A stretch of DNA of 64,000 nucleotides from the IMG/VR virus record IMGVR_UViG_3300027708_000012, positions 248,001-312,000 of that record, one strand, 5' to 3'. The stretch comes from a virus. The translations under genes were made by a program, and so were the position numbers. A model generated the notes under the pieces. It had not been told where the DNA came from. It ran no database searches and saw only the letters and a program-made list of their open reading frames with translations. Each line of letters begins with the position of its first letter. Position 1 is the stretch's first letter. Positions 23,488-52,474 of the stretch are shown here, one piece after another.

Positions 23488-23515
23488 AAAAGTATGTATG
23501 CTTGTACTAAGTTGG

Positions 23516-24175: not shown

Positions 24176-24179
24176 CTAT

Positions 24180-24187: not shown

Positions 24188-24191
24188 AAGT

Positions 24192-24219: not shown

Positions 24220-24235
24220 AAGCGGGGGTCTGTCT

Positions 24236-24311: not shown

Positions 24312-24316
24312 ATATT

Positions 24317-24392
24317 TGGGGTGTCTTACCGGTATCGATCCGGTACTACCGCTTTCACAGAGCAGGGTGCAGGCCACTACACTAAAGACACC
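24317..24392 (-). tRNA. tRNA-His(GTG)
   Basis: Loop CTGTGAA. An extra G at position -1 is encoded opposite C73 (5' GGTGTCTT, 3' AAGACACC-CCA), as expected for bacterial tRNA-His. Confidence 0.92.
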
Positions 24393-24398
24393 ATAGAT

Positions 24399-24473
24399 TG
24401 GTACCGCCACGAGGAATCGAACCTCAATTACCAGTTCCGCAAACTAGTGTATTATCCATTATACGATAGCGAT
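24399..24473 (-). tRNA. tRNA-Arg(GCG)
   Basis: CTAGT/ACTGG anticodon stem, loop TTGCGGA giving anticodon GCG, GGTTCGATTCC T arm and encoded CCA. Most bacteria use ACG (deaminated to ICG) for CGN codons, so a G34 version is unusual. Confidence 0.82.
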
Positions 24474-24479
24474 AAAATT

Positions 24480-24553
24480 TGGCAGGCGCACTAGGGATCG
24501 AACCTAGACTAACAGAGTCAAAGTCTGTTGTGCTACCATTACACAATGCGCCA
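24480..24553 (-). tRNA. tRNA-Gln(TTG)
   Basis: ACAGA/TCTGT anticodon stem, loop CTTTGAC, encoded CCA. Position 1:72 is a U-U mismatch, in keeping with the weak first pair of tRNA-Gln. Confidence 0.9.
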
Positions 24554-24590
24554 ATAATAAAGAATAAATATTGTTTTCTTATATTAAAAT

Positions 24591-25142
24591 ATGACAGAAA
24601 AAGTTTATAAATTAAACCTGCCTTCAATTGAAGAAATAATGCTACCTGGAAAATTTCAAGAACTTTTCCCTAGTAATATTTTTCCTAAAAATAATTCTGA
24701 AATGAGTTTGCTTGATCCAAAAACTTACCTTTTACCAGAAAATTTAAAAATTGGTCATTATGATGTTGATCATAGTATTTTATTTCATAAATCTCACGGT
24801 CAAAAAGGACTAATACATAGTGATACAAACGGTATATGGGCAATTAATTATATAGTTGGAGGGTCCGGTATTCTACATTATTATAACCCAGAAGACTTAG
24901 GTCCTCCAAATTCAAAACCAGATCCAACCGGTGTAGTTAGACCCGTTTGGGGGGATACATCAGCTTTACCCATTAAAACATATTTCATGGATCAAGGAGT
25001 GTATCTTGTTTGTACCGAGGATCCACATTTAGCTGTTGGTAATGGGAATAGGTATTCTTTAAGTATACGAGTACATCCAACACAACAGAAATCATGGCAA
25101 AGTGCTGTTGATTTTTTTCGGCCGTTCATTGAATTTTGGTAG
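24591..25142 (+). CDS. 2OG-Fe(II) oxygenase/cupin-like protein
   Basis: A 183-residue protein with His76-x-Asp78 (LIHSDT), His146 (DPHLAV) and Arg154. An ATAAATA late-type motif lies about 20 nt upstream; no Shine-Dalgarno is evident. Its Trp-stop codons (25137-25142) lie antisense to the 3' CCA end of tRNA-Met. Confidence 0.62.
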   Translation: MTEKVYKLNLPSIEEIMLPGKFQELFPSNIFPKNNSEMSLLDPKTYLLPENLKIGHYDVDHSILFHKSHGQKGLIHSDTNGIWAINYIVGGSGILHYYNPEDLGPPNSKPDPTGVVRPVWGDTSALPIKTYFMDQGVYLVCTEDPHLAVGNGNRYSLSIRVHPTQQKSWQSAVDFFRPFIEFW

Positions 25143-25212
25143 TAACGGTCGGACTCGAACCGACGATAAACACCGTATGAAGGTGGTGCATTAGCCACTA
25201 TGCTACGTTACC
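25137..25212 (-). tRNA. tRNA-Met or tRNA-Ile2 (CAT)
   Basis: Loop TTCATAC with CACC/GGTG stem, acceptor GGTAACG/CGTTACT, encoded CCA. A normal first pair (G-U) argues against initiator. Elongator Met and lysidine-modified Ile2 cannot be told apart by eye. Confidence 0.85.
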
Positions 25213-25450
25213 ATAAGGATAACAACTAAGATGCGCCACCATCGTTATTGGCGCCATTCACCTGTTTATACAAGGTCGACCAGGACTCGGTACGTCACTT
25301 GGGATTCATCCAGTTGATACGCCACCTGTATACCTCCACCGTTCGACGGCGATAAGTCGGGAATCGAACCCGCAACCTTTTACTACCTCGGTCCTTCGAA
25401 GAAACCTTATTAGCATGACTTCACTTGCTGACACTTAATTGTTATTCTTA
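25213..25450 (-). ncRNA. structured spacer RNA with tRNA-like T and anticodon arms
   Basis: A 238-nt spacer exactly flush with the CCA of tRNA-Lys(TTT) on one side and G1 of tRNA-Met on the other. Its ends form an 18-bp-class stem (TAAGAATAACAATTAAG with CTTAGTTGTTATCCTTA). Inside lie a T-arm look-alike (25358-25372, GGGTTCGATTCCC core) and a 17-nt anticodon-arm look-alike with loop CTTCGAA (25390-25406, anticodon TCG), but no matching acceptor. It is either a degenerate tRNA-Arg or a tRNA-mimicking RNA. Confidence 0.6.
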
Positions 25451-25526
25451 TGGTAGGACTGCCCGGACTCGAACCGGGAATTGACGGATTAAAAGTCCGC
25501 TGTGATTACCATTTCACCACAATCCC
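25451..25526 (-). tRNA. tRNA-Lys(TTT)
   Basis: GCGGA/TCCGT anticodon stem, loop CTTTTAA, GGTTCGAGTCC T arm and encoded CCA. Confidence 0.93.
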
Positions 25527-25530
25527 ATAT

Positions 25531-25606
25531 TGGTCCACTCAGTCGGATTCGAACCGACACCTCATTGATTAAGAGTCAAGTGCGCTACCATTAACGCTAC
25601 GAGTGG
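25531..25606 (-). tRNA. tRNA-Lys(CTT)
   Basis: Loop CTCTTAA, acceptor CCACTCG/TGAGTGG and encoded CCA. Together with TTT it gives both lysine anticodons. Confidence 0.9.
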
Positions 25607-25667
25607 TTGGTCGTAATTAAATTGATTTAATGTGCCAACCAAGACCAATACGGGGTCAAGATTGACA

Positions 25668-25688
25668 CTAACGTTTAGCACGTTTCAT
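25668..25688 (-). CDS. possible six-codon mini-ORF
   Basis: ATG AAA CGT GCT AAA CGT TAG (MKRAKR) is preceded by a strong AAAGGAG and sits just downstream of hairpin-element copy 3. It might be a leader peptide or a chance ORF. Confidence 0.25.
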   Translation of the reverse strand: MKRAKR

Positions 25689-25718
25689 GTCGTTCTCCTT
25701 TGAACATTAATTAAAAAA

Positions 25719-25783
25719 ACAGGATGCATTTTTACTGGTTAGATTAAAAGTCTAGTGTAATAAATTTGCTGTTAGCATCCTAA
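25719..25783 (-). repeat. hairpin element, copy 3
   Basis: Stem GGATGC/GCATCC (25722-25727 with 25775-25780) with conserved TAACAGCAAATTTATT and AAAAATG segments. It starts 3 nt after the CCA of the UAU tRNA. The change to G-C at the fifth stem position is compensatory relative to copy 2. Confidence 0.6.
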
Positions 25784-25785
25784 AC

Positions 25786-25877
25786 TGGTACCCCCGGCGG
25801 GAATCGAACCCACATTAACCAATTATCTGTTGCATACGGGATATAAATCCGCTGTTTTACCATTAAACTACAGGGGC
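25786..25877 (-). tRNA. unusual tRNA, anticodon TAT (Ile?), long variable arm
   Basis: Acceptor GCCCCTG/CGGGGGT, D arm GTTT/AAAC and T arm GTGGG/CCCGC are complete, with CCA. The anticodon loop is TTTATAT and the closing 31:39 pair is A-C. The variable region is 22 nt, as in type II tRNAs, although Ile tRNAs are type I. It could decode AUA, or be derived from a Leu/Ser/Tyr tRNA. Confidence 0.75.
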
Positions 25878-25881
25878 ATAT

Positions 25882-25956
25882 TGGTACTCCGAACGGGTTT
25901 CGATCCCGCTTCTTCGCCTTGAAAGGGCAACGTTCTAGCCAGTAAACTACCGGAGT
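25882..25956 (-). tRNA. tRNA-Glu(TTC), copy 2
   Basis: TTGCC/GGCGA anticodon stem, loop CTTTCAA, acceptor ACTCCGG/TCGGAGT and encoded CCA. It differs throughout from copy 1 at 21600. Confidence 0.88.
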
Positions 25957-25963
25957 ATAAAAT

Positions 25964-26038
25964 TGGTAGCCAATGATGGGAACGATCCATCGACCCTCGC
26001 CTTATCAAGACGATGCTCTACCACTGAGCTAATTGGCT
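25964..26038 (-). tRNA. tRNA-Ile(GAT) with atypical T loop
   Basis: TCGTC/GGCGA anticodon stem, loop TTGATAA, encoded CCA. The T loop reads ATCGTTC instead of TTCRANY: the invariant T54-A58 pair is inverted to A54-T58. Confidence 0.87.
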
Positions 26039-26043
26039 ATAAT

Positions 26044-26119
26044 TGGTGGAGAAGAGGGGGATCGAACCCCTGACCTTCTGCTTGCAAAGCAGTTGCTCTC
26101 CCAGCTGAGCTACATCCCC
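26044..26119 (-). tRNA. tRNA-Ala(TGC)
   Basis: GGGGATGTAGCTCAGCTGGG start and loop TTTGCAA closely match bacterial tRNA-Ala(UGC); encoded CCA. Confidence 0.95.
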
Positions 26120-26135
26120 AAAAGATTTTAGTGAT

Positions 26136-26807
26136 TCACCAAAAAATTATTCCACTATCATTTTGTAGATTAACATGCATTTGCATTGTTAACCTCATAT
26201 CGTTCGAATCTGATAATGAAAATGGTGCAATACTATGTACTAATTTAGATGGCCACATTGCCATCATACCTTGTGTATAACAGAATTCCTCGTCAGTATC
26301 TACCTGATAATTTCTAGGAATTTTTCCTATTGTGTTATCATATAACAATGATCCACCACTGTTTGGCAATACAATAGGAATTATAATTGATTCTAATTTT
26401 CCAGGATTTAATAAATCTTTTAATTTTGGAAATTGATCTATATGAAAATTAACATATGGAAATTTAACATTTCTGTTTCCAATATTATTTAAAAATACAT
26501 GGAATCCTGGAAATTGTAAATTAGGCGAATAATTTATAGGAATATTATAATAAGATGAAAGTTTATTTTTTATTTTATCATAATAATAAGAAAAATGTTC
26601 TAACATTATTTCGTTATTAGCCGTTATCTCTTTTTCGGAAAAATGAAAAGTATACGCTCCTGGTGGAAGTACACTAGAAAATACTGTTGGATTGATATGT
26701 TTTTCTCTTACACTTTTCCAATGAGATTTTAACATAAAAACTTTTGTTTTTATATCATCTAATTCAGATTGATCGAAAAAATTATTATCAATAACAACAG
26801 GTTTCAT
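26136..26807 (-). CDS. 2OG-Fe(II) oxygenase-like protein
   Basis: A 223-residue protein with FHID (His122, Asp124), His191 (KLVHSI) and Arg205. GGSLLYDN and MWPSKLVHS fit the jelly-roll strands of this superfamily. It has no Shine-Dalgarno; TATAAATA ends 4 nt before the ATG. Substrate unknown. Confidence 0.68.
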   Translation of the reverse strand: MKPVVIDNNFFDQSELDDIKTKVFMLKSHWKSVREKHINPTVFSSVLPPGAYTFHFSEKEITANNEIMLEHFSYYYDKIKNKLSSYYNIPINYSPNLQFPGFHVFLNNIGNRNVKFPYVNFHIDQFPKLKDLLNPGKLESIIIPIVLPNSGGSLLYDNTIGKIPRNYQVDTDEEFCYTQGMMAMWPSKLVHSIAPFSLSDSNDMRLTMQMHVNLQNDSGIIFW

Positions 26808-26811
26808 TTTA

Positions 26812-26819
26812 TATTTATA
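26812..26819 (-). promoter_or_regulatory. late promoter octamer (leaderless spacing)
   Basis: Exact TATAAATA followed by TAAA and the ATG at 26807, directly after the 3' end of tRNA-Asn. Confidence 0.65.
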
Positions 26820-26820
26820 C

Positions 26821-26896
26821 TGGCTCCCCAGCGTGGGATCGAACCACGGACACCTTGATTAACAGTCAAGTGCAACTACCGCTGTGCTACTGGGGA
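26821..26896 (-). tRNA. tRNA-Asn(GTT)
   Basis: CTTGA/TCAAG anticodon stem, loop CTGTTAA, GGTTCGATCC T arm and encoded CCA. Its first 21 nt are also the last codons of the upstream methyltransferase. Confidence 0.93.
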
Positions 26897-27556
26897 ATAA
26901 AATTTGTTCTTTTTACTTATGACTAGGCGACTTGGCCAGTCTACAGTTTTGTTATATAAATTCATTGTTGTTGAGTTTATACTTACAATACTAAGATACG
27001 GATCTATTGATGACACAATGTCTTCAACAGATAATTGATGTGGTATGATACTTAAATTTAAAGCAGACAATTTTAATAATGTGTCAGTTGACATACTTTT
27101 AAAGTCTCTTCCTGAAATGCTTAACCAAATACCGTTAGGTCTAAGCACTCTAGATACAGATTTAGCAAATGCATGTCTTAGAGAACTATCTAAATCGTAT
27201 GTATGAAAACAGCCTCGATCTACTACGTAGTCAAAACTATTTTCTTCAAAACTATTTTTTAAAATATCAGTTGCTTGCAATTTAATTTTTGCATTTTCTT
27301 TTTTAGAAAGAGCAGAAATAATTGCTACATCAGATATATCTATTGCTGTTACATCTAATCCTCTTTGTTGTAACCAAACAGCATTTACAGGATCAGCGCC
27401 GCAACCTAATTCAAGTACAGTACCGCTAACTATATTTTGTTTAGAAAACCAATCTACAATATTGTGATCTACATCACCTTCCCAAGGATGGCTGGATGCA
27501 TTTGCAAAAATGCTATTCCATTTTTCTGTATTTTCTAAATTATTGTAGTTTGTCAT
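26876..27556 (-). CDS. class I SAM-dependent methyltransferase
   Basis: A 226-residue protein with motif I VLELGCGADPVNAVWL, DVTAIDIS, FDYVVDRGCFHTYD and LRPNGIWLSISG. This matches TPMT-like small-molecule or generic methyltransferases. Its final residues (SPVAQR and stop) are encoded by the 5' end of tRNA-Asn on the same strand, so RNase P processing of the tRNA would remove the stop codon from this mRNA. Confidence 0.8.
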   Translation of the reverse strand: MTNYNNLENTEKWNSIFANASSHPWEGDVDHNIVDWFSKQNIVSGTVLELGCGADPVNAVWLQQRGLDVTAIDISDVAIISALSKKENAKIKLQATDILKNSFEENSFDYVVDRGCFHTYDLDSSLRHAFAKSVSRVLRPNGIWLSISGRDFKSMSTDTLLKLSALNLSIIPHQLSVEDIVSSIDPYLSIVSINSTTMNLYNKTVDWPSRLVISKKNKFYSPVAQR

Positions 27557-27569
27557 TTTTCACTCAATT

Positions 27570-27644
27570 TGGCGGCTCCAAGGGGAATCGAACCCCTATT
27601 AATGGCGTGACAAGCCACCGTACTAACCATTATACTATGAAGCC
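27570..27644 (-). tRNA. tRNA-Asp(GTC)
   Basis: GTGGC/GCCAT anticodon stem, loop TTGTCAC, acceptor GGCTTCA/TGGAGCC and encoded CCA. Confidence 0.92.
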
Positions 27645-32793: not shown

Positions 32794-34990
32794 TATACTG
32801 TCCAATCGCACGATTTAAACTGGTTGTGTCAATGGCTGGCAAAACTTTACACCATTCTTTAGGAGTGATGCCTGTTACATCTTCAACTAGTTCAAAATCG
32901 CTAGAATTAATTATATCCTCAATACGTTTAATTTCCCAACCTTCTGACCAAGCAATGTTAATCAATTCGTAAATTTGTTTAACAGCAAATCTAAGTCGTT
33001 GCACAGCATCCTCAATTGGATCAACGGCTTGGTTCTTTTTAGTGCCAGGCAATGGATTGATAGTTTTCTTATTAGAGCCAGCTAGTACGTCATTTGTATT
33101 TAATTTACTAGTAGCTGTAACTTGATTACTGTCTTTCTTTAATGATGCAACAATGGCCATAATCTCAGCTGTAATGCCATTGCGGTCAATTGCTTGGCTC
33201 AAACGTTCCATGTGATTGTTAATGTCGCTGAGGAAACGTTCACTAATATCTTCACCTGTAAGCATGTTCCATTGATTACCAGTGTAGTCGTAAACTTCAC
33301 TAACATCCAGCCATTCTGTGATTAGTGTATTAGTAGCTGTACCTGTAATTGTACTGACTTGTTCGCAATGCTGATAAACAACACTGACAAGACGTTCAGG
33401 TGCATAGTCAAATACTAGTACACTTTCCTTCTCACCTTTAGCCCACGGAGTTTTACAACGGAAACAGCCTTGGAAGTAATCGCTAGCACTCTTGTCGTTG
33501 TTCATTTGATGCACACTCCACCATTCGGGAATACTAGTTCCTTCAAGGAAACGCCCGCAAGTTAGTGTAATAGTACCAAGCCCGCCTTCGATAGTGTCAC
33601 GTTGAATCAAATCTTTAACAGTTTGAATGTCTTTAACACCTTTGCCGCTAGCATTAATAATTCGTCGCTTGCCAAAAAATTGATGTTGTTTCAACATCTT
33701 TTCCAATGCGGCAATTGCAGCAACATCGTTTGGCAATACCCAAAGAGTGTGTCGGCTAACTTTGTCTGCAAAACTAATAAAACGTTTTGGTGGTTTCTTG
33801 TAAGTTGTCACAGCAAATGACAAAAATTCATTTACAGCCATTGTGTTTTTAAATGTGCCTTGCTCAGTGGCAAATAGTTTAGGAAATGTAAAGCCATCTT
33901 CGCCTAAGAGATCTTTAACCTTGTCTGGAACATTAACCATGGCATAGTTAATATCGGCACGATACTTGAATTGCTTGGCAAGAACTGTATCAGGAGTCAA
34001 CAATGCTTGTTTACGCAACTGTTGTTCTTCAACATAGTCAAAGTTATAAATTAGATCTTGTTCATAACGTCCACTAAGCACAGTCTTATAAGGTGTACCA
34101 CTCAATTCAACTTTCTTACTGAATTTTAATTTGTCCCACAATCGTTGTGTGTTGTCAGTAGTGGTTGCATAATGTTGCTCATCGAATGCTACCAAATCCC
34201 AATACACATTAAAGATATCTTTAAGCAGCTTATTAGGATTATCAAAATGTTTGTTAATAAATTGCAAACTGACAAATACTACATTTACAGGTCGTTCGCA
34301 CTTTAGCGTTTTAACTCGTTTGTAATCATGATATTGCCAGTCAGCATAGTTAACGTGACTTTCTTCTCCGTTAGGCAACAACGCACTCCAGCTGTCATTG
34401 ACACCAACTTTGGCCGTAACTACCAGTACAGTCTTTGCTTTTTGTGCTCGAGCAATTTCATAAGTCATAAAACATTTGCCAGCCCGCATAATAGCATTGA
34501 CCAGAATGTCATTTTTAGTTTTAAATTTATCAACAGCCCAGTCAACAATTTTTTGTTGGTAAGGAAATGCAGGAAAGTCTTCCAAGGCCATAACACCGTG
34601 ACGAACTTCGTTAATAAGTTGTTTACCAATATTAACTACATTGTCTACACTTTCTTGTTTTGGATCAAAGAACCATTCAGATGCGGTATTATCGCTAGGT
34701 ACCCACATACCCATACGTTTTTGTTTTGGGTGTAGCACACTTTGTTCTAGTTGACGGAGTTTACTCAAACTTTCGTGCTTGTCGCCCGTTTCACATATAT
34801 CACTTACATCTTCAACCCAGAGGATTTCGTAAGGATCGGCAGAATTTGCAGCTGTTAGCTGTTCTTTAATTCGAATTTCGGCTGCCTCATGAGCACTATT
34901 GGCTTTACGTCTAGCAGAGCCATTTTTAACCTGATGCGCTTTTCGATTTAGCTTAGTAGTATACCAATACATCACGCTATAATACTGCAT
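32780..34990 (-). CDS. SF2 helicase (restriction-helicase-like)
   Basis: A 736-residue SF2 helicase. The P-loop is NAIMRAGKCFMTYE, lacking the usual GxGKT pattern, followed by motif II DEQH, motif III SGTPYK, GRFLEGTSIPEW (motif V) and FQGCFRC (motif VI, with Arg finger). The architecture resembles helicase subunits of type I/III or DISARM-like systems; no nuclease motif was recognised in the roughly 100-residue N-terminal or the 200-residue C-terminal extensions. GGAG lies 5 nt before ATG 34990, and a TTGACT-17-TATAAT promoter is upstream. First gene of a helicase-methylase-methylase operon. Confidence 0.78.
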   Translation of the reverse strand: MQYYSVMYWYTTKLNRKAHQVKNGSARRKANSAHEAAEIRIKEQLTAANSADPYEILWVEDVSDICETGDKHESLSKLRQLEQSVLHPKQKRMGMWVPSDNTASEWFFDPKQESVDNVVNIGKQLINEVRHGVMALEDFPAFPYQQKIVDWAVDKFKTKNDILVNAIMRAGKCFMTYEIARAQKAKTVLVVTAKVGVNDSWSALLPNGEESHVNYADWQYHDYKRVKTLKCERPVNVVFVSLQFINKHFDNPNKLLKDIFNVYWDLVAFDEQHYATTTDNTQRLWDKLKFSKKVELSGTPYKTVLSGRYEQDLIYNFDYVEEQQLRKQALLTPDTVLAKQFKYRADINYAMVNVPDKVKDLLGEDGFTFPKLFATEQGTFKNTMAVNEFLSFAVTTYKKPPKRFISFADKVSRHTLWVLPNDVAAIAALEKMLKQHQFFGKRRIINASGKGVKDIQTVKDLIQRDTIEGGLGTITLTCGRFLEGTSIPEWWSVHQMNNDKSASDYFQGCFRCKTPWAKGEKESVLVFDYAPERLVSVVYQHCEQVSTITGTATNTLITEWLDVSEVYDYTGNQWNMLTGEDISERFLSDINNHMERLSQAIDRNGITAEIMAIVASLKKDSNQVTATSKLNTNDVLAGSNKKTINPLPGTKKNQAVDPIEDAVQRLRFAVKQIYELINIAWSEGWEIKRIEDIINSSDFELVEDVTGITPKEWCKVLPAIDTTSLNRAIGQYNALQ

Positions 34991-35019
34991 CTTCACTCCA
35001 ATTTACTGTTAATGTAATT

Positions 35020-35048
35020 ATTATACACTCAATATTTAAACAAGTCAA
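35020..35048 (-). promoter_or_regulatory. sigma70-type promoter
   Basis: TTGACT (35048-35043), 17-nt spacer, TATAAT (35025-35020), just downstream of the tmRNA terminator, driving the helicase operon. Confidence 0.85.
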
Positions 35049-35051
35049 CCA

Positions 35052-35076
35052 TAAAGAAACCCGCCGAAGCGGGTTC
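35052..35076 (-). terminator. tmRNA terminator
   Basis: AACCCGC-TTCG-GCGGGTT followed by TCTTT on the minus strand; stable tetraloop hairpin at the 3' end of the tmRNA transcript. Confidence 0.85.
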
Positions 35077-35079
35077 TAC

Positions 35080-35455
35080 TATTTTTGGTGACAAAGCATA
35101 GTTGCTTCGCGAGGGCAGTTTTTTAGGCTGCTAATGCAAATTCTGCATCATTGGCAGAAGCCAATGTTACTGGAACTTGAAAATACTCGAATGTAGATGT
35201 TTTAGCATTTACTTTAATTTGCTTGATTTACAGTCATCGCCTACTGAGTTGCCGTCTTCAATATCTAACCCCGTCGAAACCATGGCAGGCCCATCATAAA
35301 CACACTCAAATCTGAAAGGTGTCGCCTGTGACGCCTTGTGTTTATAACACCACCACTCGGGACTCAAACCCGCATGTGTTTATGGTGGACCTGGCGGGAG
35401 TCGAACCCGCGTCCGAGATTCCTTCTATCCAAAGGAATTACAACTATTTCATTTA
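35080..35455 (-). ncRNA. ssrA: circularly permuted tmRNA (two-piece)
   Basis: The acceptor piece comes first on the minus strand: GGACGCGGGTTCGACTCC T arm and CAGGTCC-A-CCA ending at 35383. After a 90-nt intervening segment (35293-35382) the other half begins at 35292 with GGGCCTG, which pairs with CAGGTCC, then the diagnostic GGTTTCGACGGGG. The tag reading frame follows (35206-35123). The intervening segment is closed by a 10-bp stem at the processed ends and holds a second T-arm-like sequence (35358-35373). The permuted order matches alpha- and some betaproteobacterial ssrA genes. Confidence 0.92.
35123..35206 (-). CDS. tmRNA proteolysis tag reading frame
   Basis: From the likely Ala resume codon (GCT, after AGTAAAT) the frame encodes a 27-residue tag beginning AKTSTFEYF and ending ANDAEFALAA-stop. 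The LAA terminus is a ClpXP/ClpAP degron. The exact resume codon is inferred. Confidence 0.8.
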   Translation of the reverse strand, partial: AKTSTFEYFQVPVTLASANDAEFALAA

Positions 35456-35461
35456 ACCCAA

Positions 35462-35665
35462 TTACTTGGGTTGAATATTTGCTGCCTGCAAGCCTTTTTG
35501 ACCTTGTACCACATCAAATGTCACTGATTGATTCTCTTGCAGAACTTTGAATCCTGATGTTTGAATCGCTGAGTAGTGTGCGAAAAGATCCTCGCCGCCG
35601 CCGTCTGGAGTAATAAACCCAAAACCTTTGGTTTCATTAAACCATTTTACTTTACCTGTTGCCAT
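35462..35665 (-). CDS. cold-shock-domain protein
   Basis: A 67-residue CspA-type protein with RNP1 KGFGFI and RNP2-like DLFAHYSAI. It binds single-stranded nucleic acid and melts RNA structure. Its stop lies 6 nt before the tmRNA acceptor piece, so the two are probably co-transcribed. TATAAT-like and GATAAATA-like boxes lie upstream near 35680-35712. Confidence 0.92.
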
Positions 35666-35773
35666 TTACTTAATTTCCTGTTAAAACACTATTATAGTGT
35701 ATTTTATTTATCAGAGCAAACATTTTGGCTAGAAAAACTAAATACTAGTACATTAAACACCGGGAGCGAATCG

Positions 35774-36364
35774 ATGGCATTAGTCGACTCAGTATTAAAT
35801 TTAATTAACAAGCAACCAAAAGATCCCAACGCACCAAAGCCTCTAGTAGGATCACGTAGCGAACGTGAAGCCAAACTAAAAGACAAAGCAGGTATGGTAA
35901 TCAGTGTATTTGCACTATTACTTGCTGTCAACAGCTGGTACGGTGGCACACTCAGCAGTAAGGTATTAAACAATACCATTGCTTCAAACAATGTATGGGC
36001 ATTTTATCAAGCTAAAAGTATCAAACAAACTCTAGCAGAACAAAGCCTTGACGATGCTACTTATCGCAAAGAAACAGAAAAAATGGCTAAATTACAAGCC
36101 AAGATCGATCGTTACGAAAGCGATCCTAAAACAGGCGAAGGCAAAAAAGAATTAATGGAAAAGGCACGTGCGTTAGAAGCAGAGCGTGACGAAGCTAAAA
36201 AACGTAGCCCATGGATTGGTTATGCCAGTACAATGTATCAATTGAGTATTGTGGTGTTGTCAGCAAGTATTCTTGCTGTTAGCATGAGCATGTTCTGGGG
36301 TAGCTTCTTTGTTGCTGGTTTAGGTGTATTGTTGTCAGCACAAGGCGTATACTTATTTTTCTAA
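35774..36364 (+). CDS. DUF4337-like membrane protein
   Basis: A 196-residue protein. A transmembrane segment at about 44-62, a charged helical coiled-coil segment at about 80-145 and two C-terminal membrane segments match DUF4337. Start 35774 has GGGAG upstream; longer reading overlaps the csp gene antisense. Function of the family is unknown. Confidence 0.7.
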   Translation: MALVDSVLNLINKQPKDPNAPKPLVGSRSEREAKLKDKAGMVISVFALLLAVNSWYGGTLSSKVLNNTIASNNVWAFYQAKSIKQTLAEQSLDDATYRKETEKMAKLQAKIDRYESDPKTGEGKKELMEKARALEAERDEAKKRSPWIGYASTMYQLSIVVLSASILAVSMSMFWGSFFVAGLGVLLSAQGVYLFF

Positions 36365-36446
36365 TTTAAAGAACCCACCTTAGGGCACGTTAGTCGTCAC
36401 GGTTATAGGCGTCCGAGCAATTGAACTGCACCTCGTTAGTGTGCCG

Positions 36447-36475
36447 GGAGATAAAGTAACTCCCACTTTTTTGGG
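36447..36475 (+). terminator. probable terminator
   Basis: GGGAG and CCTCC-type complementary CTCCC arms around ATAAAGTAA, then AC and T6, upstream of the third desaturase. The preceding stretch from 36365 also holds a GGCAC/GTGCC inverted repeat and no gene. Confidence 0.6.
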
Positions 36476-36485
36476 TAAATATATA

Positions 36486-37190
36486 ATGAATCCAATTATA
36501 TATACCCTGATAGTAACACATATTACTATCGTCTGTGTTACCCTATTTTTACATAGAGGTCAAGCACACAAAGGAATAGAATTCCACCCAATTCTAAGTC
36601 ATTTTATGCGATTCTGGTTGTGGTTAACAACTGGAATGATTACTCGTCAATGGGTAGCTATACATCGTAAACATCATGTGTTCAGTGATAAGGAAGGCGA
36701 TCCGCATAGTCCGCATATATTTGGCATTTGGAATATAGTATTTAAGGGTGTTACATTTTACGCTCGAGAAGGACGTAACGCTCAAACTATGATGAGTTAC
36801 GGAAAAGGTACTCCTAATGATTGGATTGAACGTAATTTGTATACCCCATATAATTTCTACGGAATTCTTTTAATGTTGATTATAGATCTTGTATTATTTG
36901 GTCTGTGGGGATTAGTAATATGGGGTATACAAATGGTGTGGATACCTTTTTGGGCAGCAGGAGTTATTAACGGAATAGGACATTGGTATGGATATCGTAA
37001 CGGTACTACAAGGGATGGGAGTCGTAACATTAGTAACATTGGCATACTTATTGGTGGCGAAGAGTTGCACAATAATCACCACTTGGATCCAGCGAGTGTT
37101 AAACTAAGTCGGCGCTGGTTTGAATTAGATATAGGCTGGATGTGGTTAAGTTTATTTAGATTTTTAAGACTAGCTAAACTTACACGTTAA
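36486..37190 (+). CDS. fatty-acid desaturase, copy 3
   Basis: A 234-residue membrane desaturase with HRGQAH, HRKHH followed by GDPHSP, and HNNHH. It is the shortest of the three and has a two-box pattern with hydrophobic stretches at about 5-25, 40-60 and 130-170. Met 36486 was chosen as the start near a GGTAAATAT late-like box. It converges on the tail-lysozyme gene. Confidence 0.85.
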   Translation: MNPIIYTLIVTHITIVCVTLFLHRGQAHKGIEFHPILSHFMRFWLWLTTGMITRQWVAIHRKHHVFSDKEGDPHSPHIFGIWNIVFKGVTFYAREGRNAQTMMSYGKGTPNDWIERNLYTPYNFYGILLMLIIDLVLFGLWGLVIWGIQMVWIPFWAAGVINGIGHWYGYRNGTTRDGSRNISNIGILIGGEELHNNHHLDPASVKLSRRWFELDIGWMWLSLFRFLRLAKLTR

Positions 37191-37191
37191 C

Positions 37192-37950
37192 TTATAGATT
37201 ACTTGCGTATTTTGTTGCTGTTGGAGCACGTTTAGCGGCTTGTACTTTGGCATTAGCTGGTCTTTCAAACTTGTGTGTCCATGCTCTACTGGCGGCATCT
37301 GCACTAGGGTACTCTCGTCCTATATATCTTGCACCGTCTGGCTCGGATAATGCAAAATCAATTTGTCCTTGCCAGTTATCTTTCCAACTTGGACCTAATT
37401 TTTGTTTTAATTGCGCAAATCGAGGACCGTTATGTTGAAATAATCCTCCACTAGGTAAGCCGTTAGAATCAATAGTTTCAACTCCTGATCTAAAGCCAGA
37501 CTCGTGTGCTATGTTAGCCATCATGCCTGCAATCTGTGTTATGCTCATATTCCATTTTTGTTTGCAATGACGAGCGATATCCCGCCAAGGAACAGAACCT
37601 GCAACTTGTTTAATTTCAACTTTAGGTTTAGCTACTGGCGGCGCCTTTGCTGTTTGTACTGGTGGCAAGGATTTAGGCTTGGCCGCTGGTGTAGCAACTG
37701 CTGTTGCTTTGGCTTTTGCAATATCTGCAGGACCAGTCATTCTTGTGTCAACGCCCGGAGGGCCAAATGGTGCTCTGCTAGGTATAGATTTTGGATCTAG
37801 TTTACCTGATCCTATTTTAGCAATATCGTCTTCTGCTTCTAGTGCATCAGCAAACTGTTGAGCTGGCGAATTAGTTTTTGGTGCTAGGCCTTTAGCTTGT
37901 AACAGATTGTCTAAATCGTCTTCTTTAATAGTAAATTCGTTTGCTCTCAT
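37192..37950 (-). CDS. phage tail lysozyme
   Basis: A 252-residue protein. An acidic N-terminal head (MRANEFTIKEDD) and an Ala/Pro/Lys-rich linker (residues 55-115) lead to a C-terminal domain with IAHESGFRSGVE, GGLFQHNGPRF and WQGQIDFAL, characteristic of phage tail lysozymes, with the Glu of HESGF as likely catalytic residue. It would cut peptidoglycan during infection. GATAAATA ends 4 nt before the ATG. Confidence 0.82.
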   Translation of the reverse strand: MRANEFTIKEDDLDNLLQAKGLAPKTNSPAQQFADALEAEDDIAKIGSGKLDPKSIPSRAPFGPPGVDTRMTGPADIAKAKATAVATPAAKPKSLPPVQTAKAPPVAKPKVEIKQVAGSVPWRDIARHCKQKWNMSITQIAGMMANIAHESGFRSGVETIDSNGLPSGGLFQHNGPRFAQLKQKLGPSWKDNWQGQIDFALSEPDGARYIGREYPSADAASRAWTHKFERPANAKVQAAKRAPTATKYASNL

Positions 37951-37954
37951 ACAC

Positions 37955-37962
37955 TATTTATC
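37955..37962 (-). promoter_or_regulatory. late promoter octamer (leaderless spacing)
   Basis: GATAAATA then GTGT and the ATG of the tail lysozyme. Confidence 0.55.
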
Positions 37963-38599
37963 GCTTTCTTAGTTCGTTGACAAAATCTAACAGTAGCGCA
38001 TGATGTTTTCCATTGTGGTACTTGCCTTTCATCCAACTATAGCTATTGTACCAAAATTGTTCACTTTCTGGATGAGCGCCAATCAGTCCTATACGTCCTT
38101 TTATTATAGCCATAGGGTCGTCGTTAGCATACTTGGCAATAGTATCATAATACCCTGTACCAGTAAAGGCACAGCCATCGTACCAAAACATGTTCATTGG
38201 GGTTCCTAGCCATTCTATTTTTATGTTTTTAGCATGCGGGCGGCGAGTATCTGTATTAGGTTGTTTTAGATACTGTACAGCATCTATATCGCCTAGTAAA
38301 TTAAAATAATGTTTGCCAGCCCAATACGCCCCCATGCATATACCAAGATAATAACCACCATTAGCTATAAACTGCTTAATACGAGCACCGTTATACTTAA
38401 ACGCACGATTGAAGCTACTAGCATCACCGAAGCCGCCAGGAACTGCTACAATATCTACGCCATCAAAGAAGTTGTCTTCTAATTCGTTGATGCCAAAGAT
38501 TTTAAAATTATAAAAGGCACTAAGTGCCTTTATAATACCATTTCCACTCTGCACTGAACACTTAGGATCGTACAAGAATAGTGCAATTGTAGGTTTCAT
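37958..38599 (-). CDS. BPL_N-type glutamine-amidotransferase-like protein
   Basis: A 213-residue class I amidotransferase fold: VAVPGGFGDASSF, nucleophile elbow GICMGAYWAG and the late IGAHPESE. These match the N-terminal domain found in some biotin-protein ligases (BPL_N). Met 38599 forms an ATGA overlap with the upstream small membrane gene, which decides the start. Function in phages unknown. Confidence 0.72.
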   Translation of the reverse strand: MKPTIALFLYDPKCSVQSGNGIIKALSAFYNFKIFGINELEDNFFDGVDIVAVPGGFGDASSFNRAFKYNGARIKQFIANGGYYLGICMGAYWAGKHYFNLLGDIDAVQYLKQPNTDTRRPHAKNIKIEWLGTPMNMFWYDGCAFTGTGYYDTIAKYANDDPMAIIKGRIGLIGAHPESEQFWYNSYSWMKGKYHNGKHHALLLDFVNELRKR

Positions 38600-38724
38600 T
38601 TGAATAGTGTATGTTCTGCGTTGATCCACATGATTAACAGTATTAACCATAATACTCTTAATACGTTGTCAAAAATTCGTTCGTACCAATCTAATAATGT
38701 TTTAGTTTCTTTTTGTTGTGTCAT
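38596..38724 (-). CDS. small membrane protein, 42 aa
   Basis: Starts MTQQKETKTLLDWYERI and has one hydrophobic segment (VLRVLWLILLIMWI). It overlaps the previous small gene by 23 nt and the next by ATGA, supporting a real translated unit. Function unknown. Confidence 0.65.
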   Translation of the reverse strand: MTQQKETKTLLDWYERIFDNVLRVLWLILLIMWINAEHTLFK

Positions 38725-38842
38725 TTTTTACTTCTATTTGTTGTACTTCTGGCTCAATATATTTGTCCCAGACTTTCTGTCCCGAGTTCCAACCAAATAC
38801 TGTACAAAATCCAATAGCAACATAAGTTAGAATAAATCCCAT
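38702..38842 (-). CDS. small membrane protein, 46 aa
   Basis: Starts MGFILTYVAIGFCTVFGW, an N-terminal membrane helix followed by a charged tail. AAAGGACAC precedes the ATG. First of three overlapping genes ending in the BPL_N-type protein. Confidence 0.68.
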   Translation of the reverse strand: MGFILTYVAIGFCTVFGWNSGQKVWDKYIEPEVQQIEVKNDTTKRN

Positions 38843-38954
38843 GTCTGTGTCCTTTCATTAACTACTACTATTTAGCCGGGCCGTAAAAATAGGAACCAAA
38901 GTTCCTACTGTGGATTACGGATTCCCACGACACCTTATCTTGTGCCCGATTTAA

Positions 38955-38983
38955 AAATGCTTCCGAAAAAATTACGGAAGCTG
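38955..38983 (-). terminator. Rho-independent terminator
   Basis: GCTTCCG/CGGAAGC stem followed by ATTTTT on the minus strand, directly after the stop of the Ala/Val-rich gene. A second hairpin (AGGAAC/GTTCCT) lies at about 38891-38908. Confidence 0.75.
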
Positions 38984-38987
38984 CTTA

Positions 38988-39632
38988 TTACTTCCCCAAT
39001 AGGCTATCAACCTTTGCTTCAGCAATGTCTAAACGAGCTTCGATAGCATCTAATGCTGGATCTGCTGGAACTGCAACTGCTTCAACAACTTGTTGAACTA
39101 CTTCTGGAGCAACTTCTTCACCTGTTGCGGCTGCAATAACTTCAGCAACTGCGTCAGCGGCAGCTTGTGCTACTTCTGGAGCTGGCGTTGGCATGTCAGC
39201 AACTGCGGCGATGATAGCGGCTGTGATTGCCACTGGATCAACTACAACTTCTGGCTCTGCTACAACAACTGCCATAACTGCGGCTGAAACAATATCAGCA
39301 ACTTCTGAGTGCTCAACTGGTTCTGCTTCGTACTGTGCTGTAACAACATCAGCAACTATGTCAGCGGCTTCTGCATGATCGGCACTTGGAGATAGTGCAA
39401 CTACTTCTTCAACTTCAAAAGGTGCATCATTTGCTACGGCAGCAATGATAGCATCAATGTGAGCTTCTGTTTTTTCGGCAATTAAGTGATCAACTTGAAC
39501 TTCAACTAGAGACAATCGTGCGTCTAGTTCTTCGATGCTTGTGGCATTGTCTGTATTAACTGATGTACCAGTTAGTGTTGCTAACTTGGCTTCTACGGAA
39601 ACTAATCTTGCGGCTAAATCTTCTAATCTCAT
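38988..39632 (-). CDS. Ala/Val/Glu-rich coiled-coil protein
   Basis: A 214-residue acidic low-complexity protein. N- and C-terminal heptad segments (LAARLVSVEAKLATL and LDIAEAKVDSLLG) look like coiled coils bracketing a degenerate Ala/Val repeat region (ADIVADVV, ADIVSAAV, ITAAIIAAV). AAGGAG precedes the ATG. Possibly structural; function unknown. Confidence 0.65.
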   Translation of the reverse strand: MRLEDLAARLVSVEAKLATLTGTSVNTDNATSIEELDARLSLVEVQVDHLIAEKTEAHIDAIIAAVANDAPFEVEEVVALSPSADHAEAADIVADVVTAQYEAEPVEHSEVADIVSAAVMAVVVAEPEVVVDPVAITAAIIAAVADMPTPAPEVAQAAADAVAEVIAAATGEEVAPEVVQQVVEAVAVPADPALDAIEARLDIAEAKVDSLLGK

Positions 39633-39715
39633 GTGATGCTCCTTAAGGGTTATGAGTGTGTACCACTACGGCACACATCTATTTAAGTGATAACCGATTA
39701 CAGCAGTATTACAAG

Positions 39716-40438
39716 TTAACTCCAATATCGATTATGGTATAAACTATCCCAGTAGGCTTTGTTATTGCGATTGATAAAATTCTTAACAAGGTACTTGCCC
39801 ATGCCAAGGTATCCCATCTTTTTAAATCTACGCGAGTCTTGCCCAAGGTGGTGGCGAACAATCCTAAACTTCCTAGGATTGTATTTTTTAGATAAAAAGT
39901 AATCTTCACTTGTTAATAAGTTCTCAGGAAACCCGCCGTACTCTTCAAACTTATCTCTGCGTGTGAGCATAAACGCACCGACCGCAAATGGACTAAAGAA
40001 TTTTAGCGTATGGTTAATTAAATTAAATGCTGTGAATCCAATCTTTGCCCTAATATCCTTATCATAGCATTTGATATTCAATCCAATAAGGTCTAGTTTT
40101 TTACGTTCAATTAATCTAACAGCATCACGAATAACAGTGGGTTTAAAAAATCGTACATCAGCATCAATGAATAAGATATAAGGTGTAGTGACTAGTCTAG
40201 CACCATTGTTTTTAGCAATACTAACAGGGCCGCCATCGATAATTTCTACATTTAAGTTACCCTTCATCAATTGAATAACTTCACGTGTATTGTCCGTTGA
40301 ACAGTCTGCAATGATGATTCTAGTGCTACCTATCATTTGATTGCGTAGGTGTGTTAATAGATAGGGAATATAGTTTTCCTCATTCTTACAAGGAATTACA
40401 ATAGTAATCTTATCGCTGAATATCATTGTTTCTTGCAT
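39716..40438 (-). CDS. family 2 glycosyltransferase
   Basis: A 240-residue GT-A enzyme with IVIPCKNEENYI, IADCSTDNTRE, GARLVTTPYILFIDADVRF (the DxD-type metal site) and an acceptor-side segment TSEDYFL. It transfers a sugar from a nucleotide donor, perhaps to host surface glycans or phage protein/DNA. It lies downstream of the LpxH-like gene in the same orientation. Confidence 0.85.
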   Translation of the reverse strand: MQETMIFSDKITIVIPCKNEENYIPYLLTHLRNQMIGSTRIIIADCSTDNTREVIQLMKGNLNVEIIDGGPVSIAKNNGARLVTTPYILFIDADVRFFKPTVIRDAVRLIERKKLDLIGLNIKCYDKDIRAKIGFTAFNLINHTLKFFSPFAVGAFMLTRRDKFEEYGGFPENLLTSEDYFLSKKYNPRKFRIVRHHLGQDSRRFKKMGYLGMGKYLVKNFINRNNKAYWDSLYHNRYWS

Positions 40439-40459
40439 TCGCCTACTACCTTAAAACTT

Positions 40460-41347
40460 TTAAACTTTAGTTGCCACTTCAATGTGCTTAGGACTTGCTC
40501 GCAAGTCTTTTGATCGTGGAATGTTAGTTCTACTTTTCCTGGCTGATCCGTCGGATCGTTTACGTGTATCGCTATTAGGATCAATAACCACATTGTCTTT
40601 CTCCTGTGTCCATGTAACTATCTCCCAAGTACCGTTATGATGTTCTACTAGGGCTGTACAACTTTCAACCCAATCGCCATCATTCATATAAACAACATCA
40701 TCTATGTTTTTAATTTCAGCATGATGTATGTGCCCGCATATAACACCATCAAAGCCACGCTTTTTACAATATCCAGCAAGGTTCTTTTCAAAGTGGAACA
40801 TAAAGTCCACAGCTTTCTTTACTCGCTTCTTAAGGTACTGACTAAGGCTAAAGTACCCAAAACCAAAGCGATGGCGTAGCCAATTGAACTTGCTATTAAT
40901 CGATAAAATGACATCATATGCTTTGTCTCCTAAAAATGCTATCCACGGTGCTAGTCTAGTAATGCCATCAAACAAGTCACCGTGTGTAACTAAGTAATGA
41001 TTGCCGTCAGCACCTATGTGTTCTATTTGATTGTGTATCTCAACGAGTCCAAAACTGAATCCATAAGGAATCATTGGTCTTAAAAATTCGTCGTGATTTC
41101 CTGCAATATAAACGACACGAGTACCACGTTTAGCATGACCGAGAACACGACGCACCACATTAGTGTGGCTCTGTTTCCATCTCCATTTATTTTGTTGGAT
41201 TCGCCAGGCATCAATTATATCTCCTACAAGGTATAGGGTATCACAAGAGTTGTGTTTAAGAAAGTTGTTTAACTTATCTGCTTGACAATCCCTTGTGCCT
41301 AAATGCACATCACTAATGAAAATGCTACGATAAGTTTTGGTTTCCAT
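40460..41347 (-). CDS. LpxH-like UDP-2,3-diacylglucosamine diphosphatase family phosphoesterase
   Basis: A 295-residue metallophosphoesterase with DVHLG, GDIIDAW, AGNHDEF, THGD and GHIHH. The GDIIDAW and GNHD spacing and overall length resemble LpxH-related enzymes that hydrolyse UDP-diacylglucosamine in lipid A synthesis, but the subfamily also has other members. A basic C-terminal tail (residues 255-295) is extra. GATAAATA ends 5 nt before the ATG. Confidence 0.78.
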   Translation of the reverse strand: METKTYRSIFISDVHLGTRDCQADKLNNFLKHNSCDTLYLVGDIIDAWRIQQNKWRWKQSHTNVVRRVLGHAKRGTRVVYIAGNHDEFLRPMIPYGFSFGLVEIHNQIEHIGADGNHYLVTHGDLFDGITRLAPWIAFLGDKAYDVILSINSKFNWLRHRFGFGYFSLSQYLKKRVKKAVDFMFHFEKNLAGYCKKRGFDGVICGHIHHAEIKNIDDVVYMNDGDWVESCTALVEHHNGTWEIVTWTQEKDNVVIDPNSDTRKRSDGSARKSRTNIPRSKDLRASPKHIEVATKV

Positions 41348-51634: not shown

Positions 51635-52175
51635 CTTTATACTCGACAATTTCCATCATTTGTTGGAAGAACCTTGTGGCGAAATCAAAACATACTTTAG
51701 CTTCGTCTGCCATGTCGTCGCTTATACGTTCTCTAATAGCTGCCTTAAGTGCTTCAGGATCTTCAAATTGGTACATGGTGCCCGACCCAGGAACACGTTT
51801 GGCAATCATCTGTCCACCAGCTAGATCACCCATGTGTCGCACATATAAGTGCGCCATTAGTTTTTTTGGATTATCTCTGATACTCATGATATAATCCATA
51901 TATTCTTGGACTATAGGAAGTAGTTCTGCATCGTCCTCATCTGTCCATAGTTCTTTATAGTCCGCATTAATTTTTGGTGCTCTGCGAATATCAGGCATGC
52001 CGGCCAGCATACCGGTTGCCATAGCACACACTTCTAGTATCTCATATTGCGGATGTTGATTTTTTAAATAAGTTGCATACAGTTTAGGATTTATTGTGCC
52101 TGAAAACAAAATTTTTACAAATTCCTGTCTTTCAGCATTGGTATGCGCTTCTTTAGTTAAATCTCGTAAGCTCAT
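51627..52175 (-). CDS. ho1: heme oxygenase
   Basis: A 182-residue heme oxygenase. The proximal His lies in TKEAHTNAER (His11) and the distal helix has MGDLAGGQMI. It opens heme to biliverdin, Fe2+ and CO, supplying the bilin reductase. Overlaps ClpS by ATGA upstream and the reductase downstream, so the three are translationally coupled. Confidence 0.9.
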   Translation of the reverse strand: MSLRDLTKEAHTNAERQEFVKILFSGTINPKLYATYLKNQHPQYEILEVCAMATGMLAGMPDIRRAPKINADYKELWTDEDDAELLPIVQEYMDYIMSIRDNPKKLMAHLYVRHMGDLAGGQMIAKRVPGSGTMYQFEDPEALKAAIRERISDDMADEAKVCFDFATRFFQQMMEIVEYKDE

Positions 52176-52474
52176 TCTTCCTCCAATTTAATTTGGAGAG
52201 GAAAATTATTTTCTCTAGCTGTAGATGTTGTTTCTACGGCCTTAGCCTCGGCAATTTCAAAACTATAAATTCCCGCTACTCCACTTCCAGTCTCGTGAAT
52301 TTGAAGCATAATGTCTCTGGCCGAATCAGTTGAATGCCTAAAGATATTGGATAAAATTGATATCACAAACTCCATCGGGGTTACATCGTCATTAAGTATA
52401 ATGACCTTCCAACGTTTTGGTTCACTGATTACTACTTTAATTTTCTCGTCAATTGCGATATCTGTACTTGACAT
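52172..52474 (-). CDS. clpS: ClpS-like N-end-rule adaptor
   Basis: A 100-residue protein with KVIILNDDVTPMEFVISIL, the conserved ClpS core that docks on ClpA, and a matching second half with HETGSGVAGIYSFEIAEAK. It would direct substrates to host ClpAP or alter its specificity. It is followed by heme oxygenase in an ATGA overlap. Confidence 0.88.
   Translation of the reverse strand: MSSTDIAIDEKIKVVISEPKRWKVIILNDDVTPMEFVISILSNIFRHSTDSARDIMLQIHETGSGVAGIYSFEIAEAKAVETTSTARENNFPLQIKLEEE

What the first reader, a model, noticed from the sequence alone, without database searches (positions are those of the whole stretch)
35080..35455. Phage-encoded circularly permuted tmRNA
The acceptor piece with T arm and CCA is encoded before the half with GGTTTCGACGGGG, and GGGCCTG pairs with CAGGTCC across the 90-nt insert. 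A tag frame ends ANDAEFALAA-stop and a terminator follows. Permuted ssrA is known for alphaproteobacteria, some betaproteobacteria and cyanobacteria. I do not know of a well-described phage copy with this layout. It would let the phage rescue stalled ribosomes with its own degron.
Basis: partly seen in the sequence, partly recalled or inferred. Interest (0 to 1): 0.85.

Follow-up and report, generated by a model that had tools for sequence, protein, structure and literature searches.

The report
Jumbo-phage two-piece tmRNA, long tag
A giant bacterial virus carries its own ribosome-rescue RNA, made in two pieces and writing an unusually long 27-residue "destroy me" tag; the RNA itself is a known kind of gene, but the long, hairpin-forming tag is a variant shared with related uncultured giant phages.

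Summary
Window minus strand 35445-35123 is a permuted (two-piece) tmRNA: RF04321 125.9 bits, cut-off 47; ARAGORN agrees. The acceptor stem pairs 7 of 7 with G3-U70; the record is a 345-kb phage. The novelty claim fails: phage two-piece tmRNAs are published (Melnitz, PMC9004378). It belongs to 132 phage permuted genes with 22-33-residue tags, which, where a terminase was found, lie in one jumbo-phage clade (7 of 7). Two patterns that together catch 9 of 11 independently fetched genes found no permuted long-tag gene in 84,980 species, though one bacterial 25-residue case turned up elsewhere. Extension and degron codons form a covarying hairpin; peptide conservation is clear in one tag class only, not shown for the window's. 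The record encodes ClpA, ClpP and ClpS relatives but no SmpB. In relatives the spacer often encodes a membrane micropeptide. New variant of a known kind.

The parts
35383..35445 (-). acceptor piece of the tmRNA (T arm, 3' acceptor strand CAGGTCC, A73, encoded CCA)
   Evidence: RF04321 model positions 1 onward; acceptor anatomy
35293..35382 (-). 90-nt intervening segment, thought to be removed from the precursor; with flanks (35278-35398) it folds better than all but 1 of 200 shuffles (z -3.75)
   Evidence: removal is inferred from known two-piece tmRNAs
35123..35292 (-). coding piece from the 5' acceptor strand GGGCCTG through GGTTTCGAC, resume codon and tag to stop
35123..35206 (-). tag reading frame, 27 codons plus TAA: AKTSTFEYFQVPVTLASANDAEFALAA
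   Evidence: ARAGORN; coordinates
35137..35179 (-). tag-internal RNA hairpin: 5' arm mostly extension codons, 3' arm degron codons
   Evidence: covariation counts (columns 28-70 of the tag); synonymous-shuffle z -3.0
35057..35076 (-). terminator-like hairpin after the tmRNA
   Evidence: consensus scan
35462..35665 (-). cold-shock domain protein gene (67 aa), ends 16 nt before the acceptor piece; co-transcription is possible, not tested
   Evidence: PF00313 1.7e-29
52172..52474 (-). phage ClpS adaptor (100 aa); ClpA and ClpP relatives lie in the same record outside the window
   Evidence: PF02617 2.9e-29

Best explanation
This is a working two-piece tmRNA gene of a jumbo phage, in a long-tag variant. 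Shown by sequence: permuted layout, complete tRNA-like domain with the alanine signal, open tag frame, terminator-like hairpin. Inferred from the family: the precursor is cut near 35383 and 35292, the 90-nt spacer is lost, host AlaRS charges it, host SmpB (none found in the phage record) brings it to stalled ribosomes, and the ribosome adds Ala plus 27 residues ending FALAA, marking the chain for a Clp protease. The 17-residue extension in front of the ordinary ANDAEFALAA degron is a translated structure: its codons form most of the 5' arm of a hairpin whose 3' arm is the degron codons. Most likely the extension first serves to keep the mRNA-like loop folded between rounds; in the class-1 relatives the peptide is conserved too, so a role of the added residues in handling by Clp unfoldases is possible there. 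The phage's own ClpA/ClpP may take part.
For: RF04321 and RF01850 hits, ARAGORN. G3-U70 and A73 in the window and in 90 of 94 long-tag copies that the script resolved (132 given). Long tags in relatives. 0 motif hits in genome contigs; a general long-tag pattern gave 28 hits there, of which ARAGORN called 10 as tmRNA, all one-piece, and none of the 28 has an acceptor arm just upstream by a loose pattern. Tag cores fold more stably than synonymous recodings: mean z -2.09 over 90 distinct tags, window -3.0. Hairpin: 15 double-change cells against 5.8 +/- 1.6, 0 of 500 shuffles as high, and above every slid control. Class-1 tags fetched without a motif in the tag start: codons 5-14 pN/pS 0.30 (272 of 50,000 permutations reach the third-position excess), codons 5-12 0.38 (1439 of 50,000). 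SmpB in 0 of 25 records, 17 of them long-tag.
Against: No expression, processing or tagging data. For the window's kind of tag no peptide constraint is shown: 14 distinct non-class-1/3 tags give pN/pS 0.67 at codons 5-9, with no third-position excess (5075 of 20,000); the lower 0.32 came from a set chosen for TF[EK][YF] and is not used. Window-type tags as a whole give 0.58, first 17 codons 0.78. Class-3 tags show little excess structure (z -0.88). In one search the structure was drawn from the window's own fold, five inner pairs hold in only 4 of 11 sequences, and two of the five measures are reached by 21 and 33 of 500 shuffles. Related sequences inflate such tests. The host is unknown. Records are linear, so gene absences are weak.
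Confidence: 0.8

Rival explanations
1. The extension is purely an RNA structural element (an added helix in the mRNA-like part); the peptide it spells is a by-product.
For: Hairpin covariation and low folding energies against synonymous recoding across classes with different peptides; no peptide constraint shown for window-like tags; window-type extension pN/pS 0.78.
Against: Class-1 codons 5-12 and 5-14, most of which the consensus fold leaves unpaired, show pN/pS 0.38 and 0.30 in the set not fetched by motif. Residues T-F stand at tag positions 5-6 in 36 of 56 distinct tags of that set.
Confidence: 0.45
2. The extension is a private address: it routes tagged chains to the phage's own ClpA/ClpP (modulated by phage ClpS) rather than to host proteases.
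For: The window's record encodes a full-length ClpP, a 758-aa ClpA relative and ClpS. Among 7 long-tag records with a terminase, a ClpA-sized AAA_2 protein is in 5, strong ClpP in 5, ClpS in 6. XacN1, with a 12-aa tag, has no AAA_2 or ClpS hit (it has a weaker ClpP-family hit).
Against: Phosso has AAA_2, ClpP and ClpS hits and a 13-aa tag; PA5oct and Atu_ph07 have the Clp genes and no permuted tmRNA hit. In the window's record the Clp genes are 17 to 101 kb from the tmRNA.
Confidence: 0.18
3. An ordinary host-type permuted tmRNA recently picked up, with a chance insertion in the tag.
For: RF01850 membership; the last ten residues are host-like; phage permuted genes with short tags are the majority (68 of 80 parsed in the first scan had at most 14 aa).
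Against: Long tags recur in 132 fetched genes, 90 of them distinct in tag sequence, with structure signals; a near relative holds a different long tag at the same place (L016).
Confidence: 0.07
4. A decayed copy or integration-site remnant.
For: Fragments of ssrA occur in temperate phages (several hits cover only 11-13% of the query, one annotated as tmRNA pseudogene with attP).
Against: Full-length hits to both models, intact acceptor stem, open tag, terminator-like hairpin.
Confidence: 0.03

Closest known systems
Two-piece (circularly permuted) tmRNA, Rfam RF04321 tmRNA_permuted / RF01850 beta_tmRNA
   Same: gene order, tRNA-like domain, G3-U70, GGTTTCGAC, resume region, hydrophobic tag end
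   Different: 27-aa tag with an internal hairpin. Of 32 bacterial loci given, ARAGORN called 28 permuted genes; their tags were 10-13 aa in 27 and 25 aa in 1. Most frequent length in the tmRNA database is 10 aa (PMC11915505, passages).
Methylophilales phage Melnitz ssrA (PMC9004378)
   Same: phage-encoded two-piece tmRNA (passages)
   Different: Melnitz's is described as closer to alphaproteobacterial genes and under a glutamine riboswitch; the window's is beta-type by RF01850, in a 345-kb phage, and the window has no Rfam riboswitch hit at gathering threshold
Xanthomonas phage XacN1 tmRNA (no annotated feature there)
   Same: beta-type permuted tmRNA in a jumbo phage; its tag ANANTFDYALAA starts with the same motif
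   Different: 12-aa tag; terminase 36% identical to the window's; no AAA_2 or ClpS hit
Clp-rich jumbo phages (Agrobacterium phage Atu_ph07, PMC6102473)
   Same: phage ClpA, ClpP, ClpS (passages)
   Different: no permuted tmRNA hit in Atu_ph07

Membership tests
Two-piece tmRNA | match to the curated covariance model above its cut-off | tested here: met
   RF04321 125.9 bits, cut-off 47; RF01850 106.1, cut-off 84
Two-piece tmRNA | acceptor piece encoded before coding piece with a paired 7-bp acceptor stem | tested here: met
   7 of 7 pairs, 90 nt apart
Two-piece tmRNA | alanine identity: G3-U70 and A73 | tested here: met
   that these are the identity elements is recalled knowledge
Two-piece tmRNA | open tag frame ending in a hydrophobic degron | tested here: met
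   tag ends EFALAA-TAA
Two-piece tmRNA | precursor processed to two RNAs that stay paired | not testable with these tools
   needs RNA from infected cells
Two-piece tmRNA | SmpB partner in the same genome | tested here: not met
   no SmpB in the phage record, 0 of 25 records; host SmpB could serve, so this does not exclude membership
Long-tag phage group (proposed here) | permuted tmRNA with a tag of 22 aa or more | tested here: met
   27 aa; 132 genes of 22-33 aa
Long-tag phage group (proposed here) | terminase of the same clade | tested here: met
   7 of 17 long-tag records had a Terminase_6N hit, the window's among them; all 7 proteins are 56-88% identical; 10 of 17 had no hit
Long-tag phage group (proposed here) | tag-internal hairpin | tested here: met
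   for the window's type; weak in class 3
Long-tag phage group (proposed here) | conserved added peptide | tested here: inconclusive
   shown for class 1 only; window-like tags pN/pS 0.67 at codons 5-9

The most novel reading that the evidence does not exclude
The ssrA gene of this jumbo-phage lineage has become a multi-output locus: its two-piece tmRNA writes an extended, hairpin-encoded tag that feeds stalled chains to a phage-owned ClpAP(S) protease, and in many relatives (not the window) the spacer cut out of the precursor is itself an mRNA for a single-pass membrane micropeptide, whose ribosome-binding site is locked in the extended acceptor stem so that tmRNA folding or processing and micropeptide synthesis are coupled.
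Probability: 0.18. Interest if true: 0.85.

Novelty: new variant of a known kind. Interest (0 to 1): 0.6.

Why it matters
Phages are known to carry tmRNA, but what the viral copy changes is unclear. Here the viral copy differs from the cellular ones examined in a defined and testable way: a long tag whose RNA folds on itself. Together with the phage's own ClpA, ClpP and ClpS relatives it suggests that some phages bring both the label and the shredder for failed translation products. It also gives simple experiments: swap tags, break the hairpin, compare proteases. The nested micropeptides in the spacer of relatives would be a new use of a piece of RNA thought to be discarded.

Tried and rejected
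Second T-arm in the window's intervening segment (GCGGGTTTGAGTCCCG, 35374-35359): looked like a copied acceptor arm, but it is absent from the intervening segments of the other loci printed (among them L191, L201, L306, L139); treated as chance or local.

One-piece tmRNA, pseudogene or att remnant: rejected.

Phage-encoded SmpB or SspB: none found (SmpB 0 of 25; SspB 0 of 11). The weak second RF04321 hit (28.8 bits, below cut-off) overlaps tRNA genes.

Long-tag isolates in INPHARED: tblastn with two tags gave only E 9 hits or none; blastn with a class-1 gene gave matches covering at most 17%.

Bacterial control in the class of a Pseudomonas genome: of 369 genomes 4 passed the RF04321 cut-off and one was strong, so I turned to the class of a Kiloniellaceae genome (52 of 58 genomes with a match); the 30 loci returned, plus L470 and L483, were examined.

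Four larger records reached through the terminase or the neighbour gene (L375, L377, L398, L014) had no RF04321 hit, nor had PA5oct, Atu_ph07, Vibrio phage 2.275.O, XbC2 or Serratia phage BF.

Peptide selection in the window's tag type: first seen as pN/pS 0.32, but that set was chosen for TF[EK][YF] and many members were fetched with a pattern that asks for it; redone without these, 0.67 and no third-position excess. Rejected as shown.

Dropped rows: of 136 permuted calls with tags of 18 aa or more I kept those of 20 aa or more and dropped L197, L314, L245 and L104 by eye, leaving 132. Class-1 extension statistics used 81 of 83 members; in the set not fetched by motif, 52. Pattern sensitivities of 97 and 96 of 132 are inflated because the same or similar patterns fetched much of the set; on the 11 genes fetched they are 6 and 8, 9 together. 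The bacterial 25-aa case L542 is missed by both.

Host: not identified.

Full report
What is there. On the minus strand of the window, positions 35445 to 35123 match the permuted tmRNA model RF04321 over its full length (125.9 bits, cut-off 47, E 3.4e-24), and RF01850 beta_tmRNA matches 35497-35055 at 106.1 bits. ARAGORN calls a permuted tmRNA with the tag AKTSTFEYFQVPVTLASANDAEFALAA. The acceptor strands GGGCCTG (35292-35286) and CAGGTCC (35393-35387) pair 7 of 7, with G.U at the third pair, A as discriminator and an encoded CCA; 90 nt lie between. The intervening segment with flanks folds better than all but 1 of 200 shuffles. A terminator-like hairpin follows. A cold-shock protein gene ends 16 nt upstream. 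The window is part of a 345,369-bp virus record with a terminase whose best isolate matches are jumbo phages; that these belong to the T4 superfamily is recalled.

Is it new that a phage has this? No. Phage Melnitz has a two-piece tmRNA, and the same paper found 402 of 18,146 phage genomes with tmRNA, 133 unique structures, 53 of them two-piece (PMC9004378, passages). The 2025 tmRNA database holds 79 phage sequences (PMC11915505, passages). Huge phages with tmRNA and SmpB are reported (PMC7162821, passages). The tmRNA website paper of 2014 tabled ten phages with ssrA (PMC4131195, passages). XacN1, Rb1 and Alcaligenes phage QDWS595 carry permuted tmRNAs above the RF04321 cut-off where their records have no annotated feature.

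What is unusual: the tag. In the first scan, 12 of 80 parsed permuted genes had tags of 22 aa or more (11 after L104 is dropped); the other 68 had at most 14 (the 80 exclude five loci from other calls and the window). They fall in classes: ANADTFDFSAMSFTGNTV followed by RGAANESRFALAA, SGKSKVALAA, ANDSRFALAA or other tails (83 genes by a regular expression); the window's type A[KNT]xxTF[EK][YF]...ANDAEFALAA; a TKDVVKVSMGRGFRF type; a TTEAEVMTF type; and others. In the 78 genes fetched without asking for the motif, T-F stands at residues 5-6 in 36 of 56 distinct tags. XacN1's 12-aa tag ANANTFDYALAA begins the same way.

Is it phage-specific? The motif pattern has 0 hits in genome contigs, 84,980 bacterial and archaeal species. 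A general long-tag pattern gives 28 hits there; ARAGORN calls tmRNA in 10, all one-piece, and none of the 28 has an acceptor arm just upstream by a loose pattern. On the 11 long-tag genes fetched independently of both patterns, they find 6 and 8, together 9. Long one-piece tags therefore exist in bacteria. Of 32 bacterial loci with RF04321 hits, ARAGORN called 28 permuted; 27 tags are 10-13 aa and one (L542) is 25 aa and missed by both patterns. So a long tag on a permuted gene is rare in the bacteria examined, not unknown.

One phage lineage. I searched 25 records for a terminase; 17 of them carry long-tag permuted genes. Of these, 7 have a hit, and the 7 proteins are 56-88% identical to each other; XacN1's is 35-38%. 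The best isolates listed by terminase are PA5oct and its kin (52%), Phosso (50%) and Atu_ph07 (54% over 76%). L016, whose neighbouring helicase-like protein is the closest of 12 found (84%), has a tmRNA at the same place with a tag of another class: the tag can be replaced while its surroundings are kept. Within the stretch held (up to 4 kb upstream), only L016 of the 12 has a tmRNA, so the gene is patchy at this place.

RNA structure in the tag. For 90 distinct tags, the part after codon 6 folds more stably than synonymous recodings (mean z -2.09; 98% of 51 class-1 tags below -1; window -3.0; class 3 only -0.88). In 11 distinct 27-codon tags of the window's type, a hairpin joins extension codons to degron codons. 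It has 15 double-change cells against 5.8 +/- 1.6 in shuffles (0 of 500 as high), covariation 0.264 against 0.107 (0 of 500), and beats all slid controls; the number of pairs with a double change (5) and of further pair types (12) are reached by 21 and 33 of 500 shuffles. RNAalifold finds 12 pairs there, 5 with double changes. The structure was taken from the window's fold, and its inner pairs hold in only part of the sequences. In 25 distinct class-1 genes with 28-codon tags another hairpin appears; at one of its pairs all 25 pair, as A-U 11, U-A 7, C-G 4 and U-G 3. The sequences are related, so these counts are not probabilities.

Peptide constraint. In class 1, 18 codons give pN/pS 0.24 over 39 distinct sequences. 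Because fetched genes by a motif at the tag start, I repeated this on genes only: codons 1-18 give 0.23 (6 of 50,000 permutations reach the third-position excess), codons 5-14 0.30 (272), codons 5-12, which the class definition does not touch, 0.38 (1439). Codons 1-4 give 0.83. For tags outside classes 1 and 3, codons 5-9 give 0.67 with no third-position excess (5075 of 20,000); whole window-type tags give 0.58 and their first 17 codons 0.78. So the peptide is held in class 1, and this is not shown for the window's type.

Phage Clp genes. The window's record encodes ClpP (NF001368 above cut-off but below the TIGR00493 equivalog cut-off; PF00574 E 7.5e-78), a 758-aa ClpA relative (TIGR02639 880.6 bits, below its 993 cut-off) and, inside the window at 52172-52474, ClpS. 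Among the 7 long-tag records with a terminase, a ClpA-sized AAA_2 protein is in 5, strong ClpP in 5 (a sixth hit is weak with a stop), ClpS in 6; only the window's proteins were checked further. SmpB is in 0 of 25 records and SspB in 0 of 11. Clp genes in this wider group are known: Atu_ph07 has seven Clp-like genes (PMC6102473, passages), and jumbo-phage ClpP, ClpS, ClpA and ClpX are reviewed (PMC7824862, passages). Phosso has all three kinds of hit and a 13-aa tag (my reading of the letters printed: ANDNVSTKVALAA), which speaks against a simple link between long tag and phage Clp.

Mechanism. Shown: a complete two-piece tmRNA gene with a structured long tag. Inferred: processing, charging, SmpB-dependent tagging and Clp proteolysis. 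The extension most likely serves RNA folding first; a role of the added residues in handling by Clp is open, with support only in class 1.

Seen on the way. In 25 of 125 distinct intervening segments (153 resolved) a Shine-Dalgarno sequence starts within 6 nt of the CCA and leads an ORF of 12 or more codons; shuffles give 2.12 on average, 6 at most in 200. A pattern that asks only for AGGA, ATG and a spacing to TGGTTTCGAC finds 28 viral stretches; all 28 read as hydrophobic peptides of 19-24 residues, 18 distinct, and in the example printed for each of the 18 the stop is the UGA of the UGAUGGG junction. The spacing in the pattern favours this size. Seven distinct genes of the MND group have pN/pS 0.16; the two-member MKIDI group gives 2.06 on 9 changes. 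In L042 the Shine-Dalgarno region pairs with the ORF's end, as an extension of the acceptor stem. The window has no such ORF. None was found in the 20 bacterial intervening segments resolved, but these are only 23-58 nt long. No match to one such peptide was found in INPHARED by tblastn, a weak test for 24 hydrophobic residues. I made no literature search for this point.

Literature searches behind statements about print. None of the passages I read describes long tags in phage permuted tmRNAs; the library lacks most subscription journals, and Sharkady and Williams 2004 was not held.

Noticed in passing
L155, L230, L042, L239 and others (spacer between CCA and the coding piece): Spacers of phage permuted ssrA genes encode a 19-24-aa hydrophobic, single-pass-like peptide (for example MNDDLTHLGIGVVVVLVVFALVLL in L155) led by AAGGAG right after CCA and stopping at the processing junction: 25 of 125 distinct spacers carry an SD-led ORF of 12 or more codons (not all of them hydrophobic) against 2.12 in shuffles; 28 of 28 in a spacing scan.
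   Followed up: partly
L147, L152, L153, L313; L150, L303; L139, L306; L248: Other spacers carry different small ORFs (one starting MKYTALCPSCF, a 38-aa one, longer ones running into the coding piece), as if the spacer were a cargo site.
   Followed up: partly
window 52172-52474 -; G000:C1 231626-232168 - and 181881-182360 -: Phage-encoded ClpS, ClpP and a 758-aa ClpA relative in the same record.
   Followed up: partly
window 13025-27644 -: 28 tRNA genes in about 15 kb, interspersed with ORFs.
   Followed up: no
L003 (XacN1 34229-40514): Unannotated permuted tmRNA with a 12-aa tag, a GOLLD RNA about 1 kb downstream and two CUA-anticodon tRNAs about 1 kb upstream; the tmRNA occurs twice in the record.
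   Followed up: no
L444 (Sinorhizobium phage Phosso): Alpha-type permuted tmRNA with a spacer of about 400 nt; ARAGORN does not call it.
   Followed up: no
window 35374-35359 -: T-arm-like sequence GCGGGTTTGAGTCCCG inside the intervening segment, not seen in the relatives printed.
   Followed up: partly
L542: A bacterial (class of G029) permuted tmRNA with a 25-aa tag, AKDSINDNTPALVAANGNYLAARAA.
   Followed up: no
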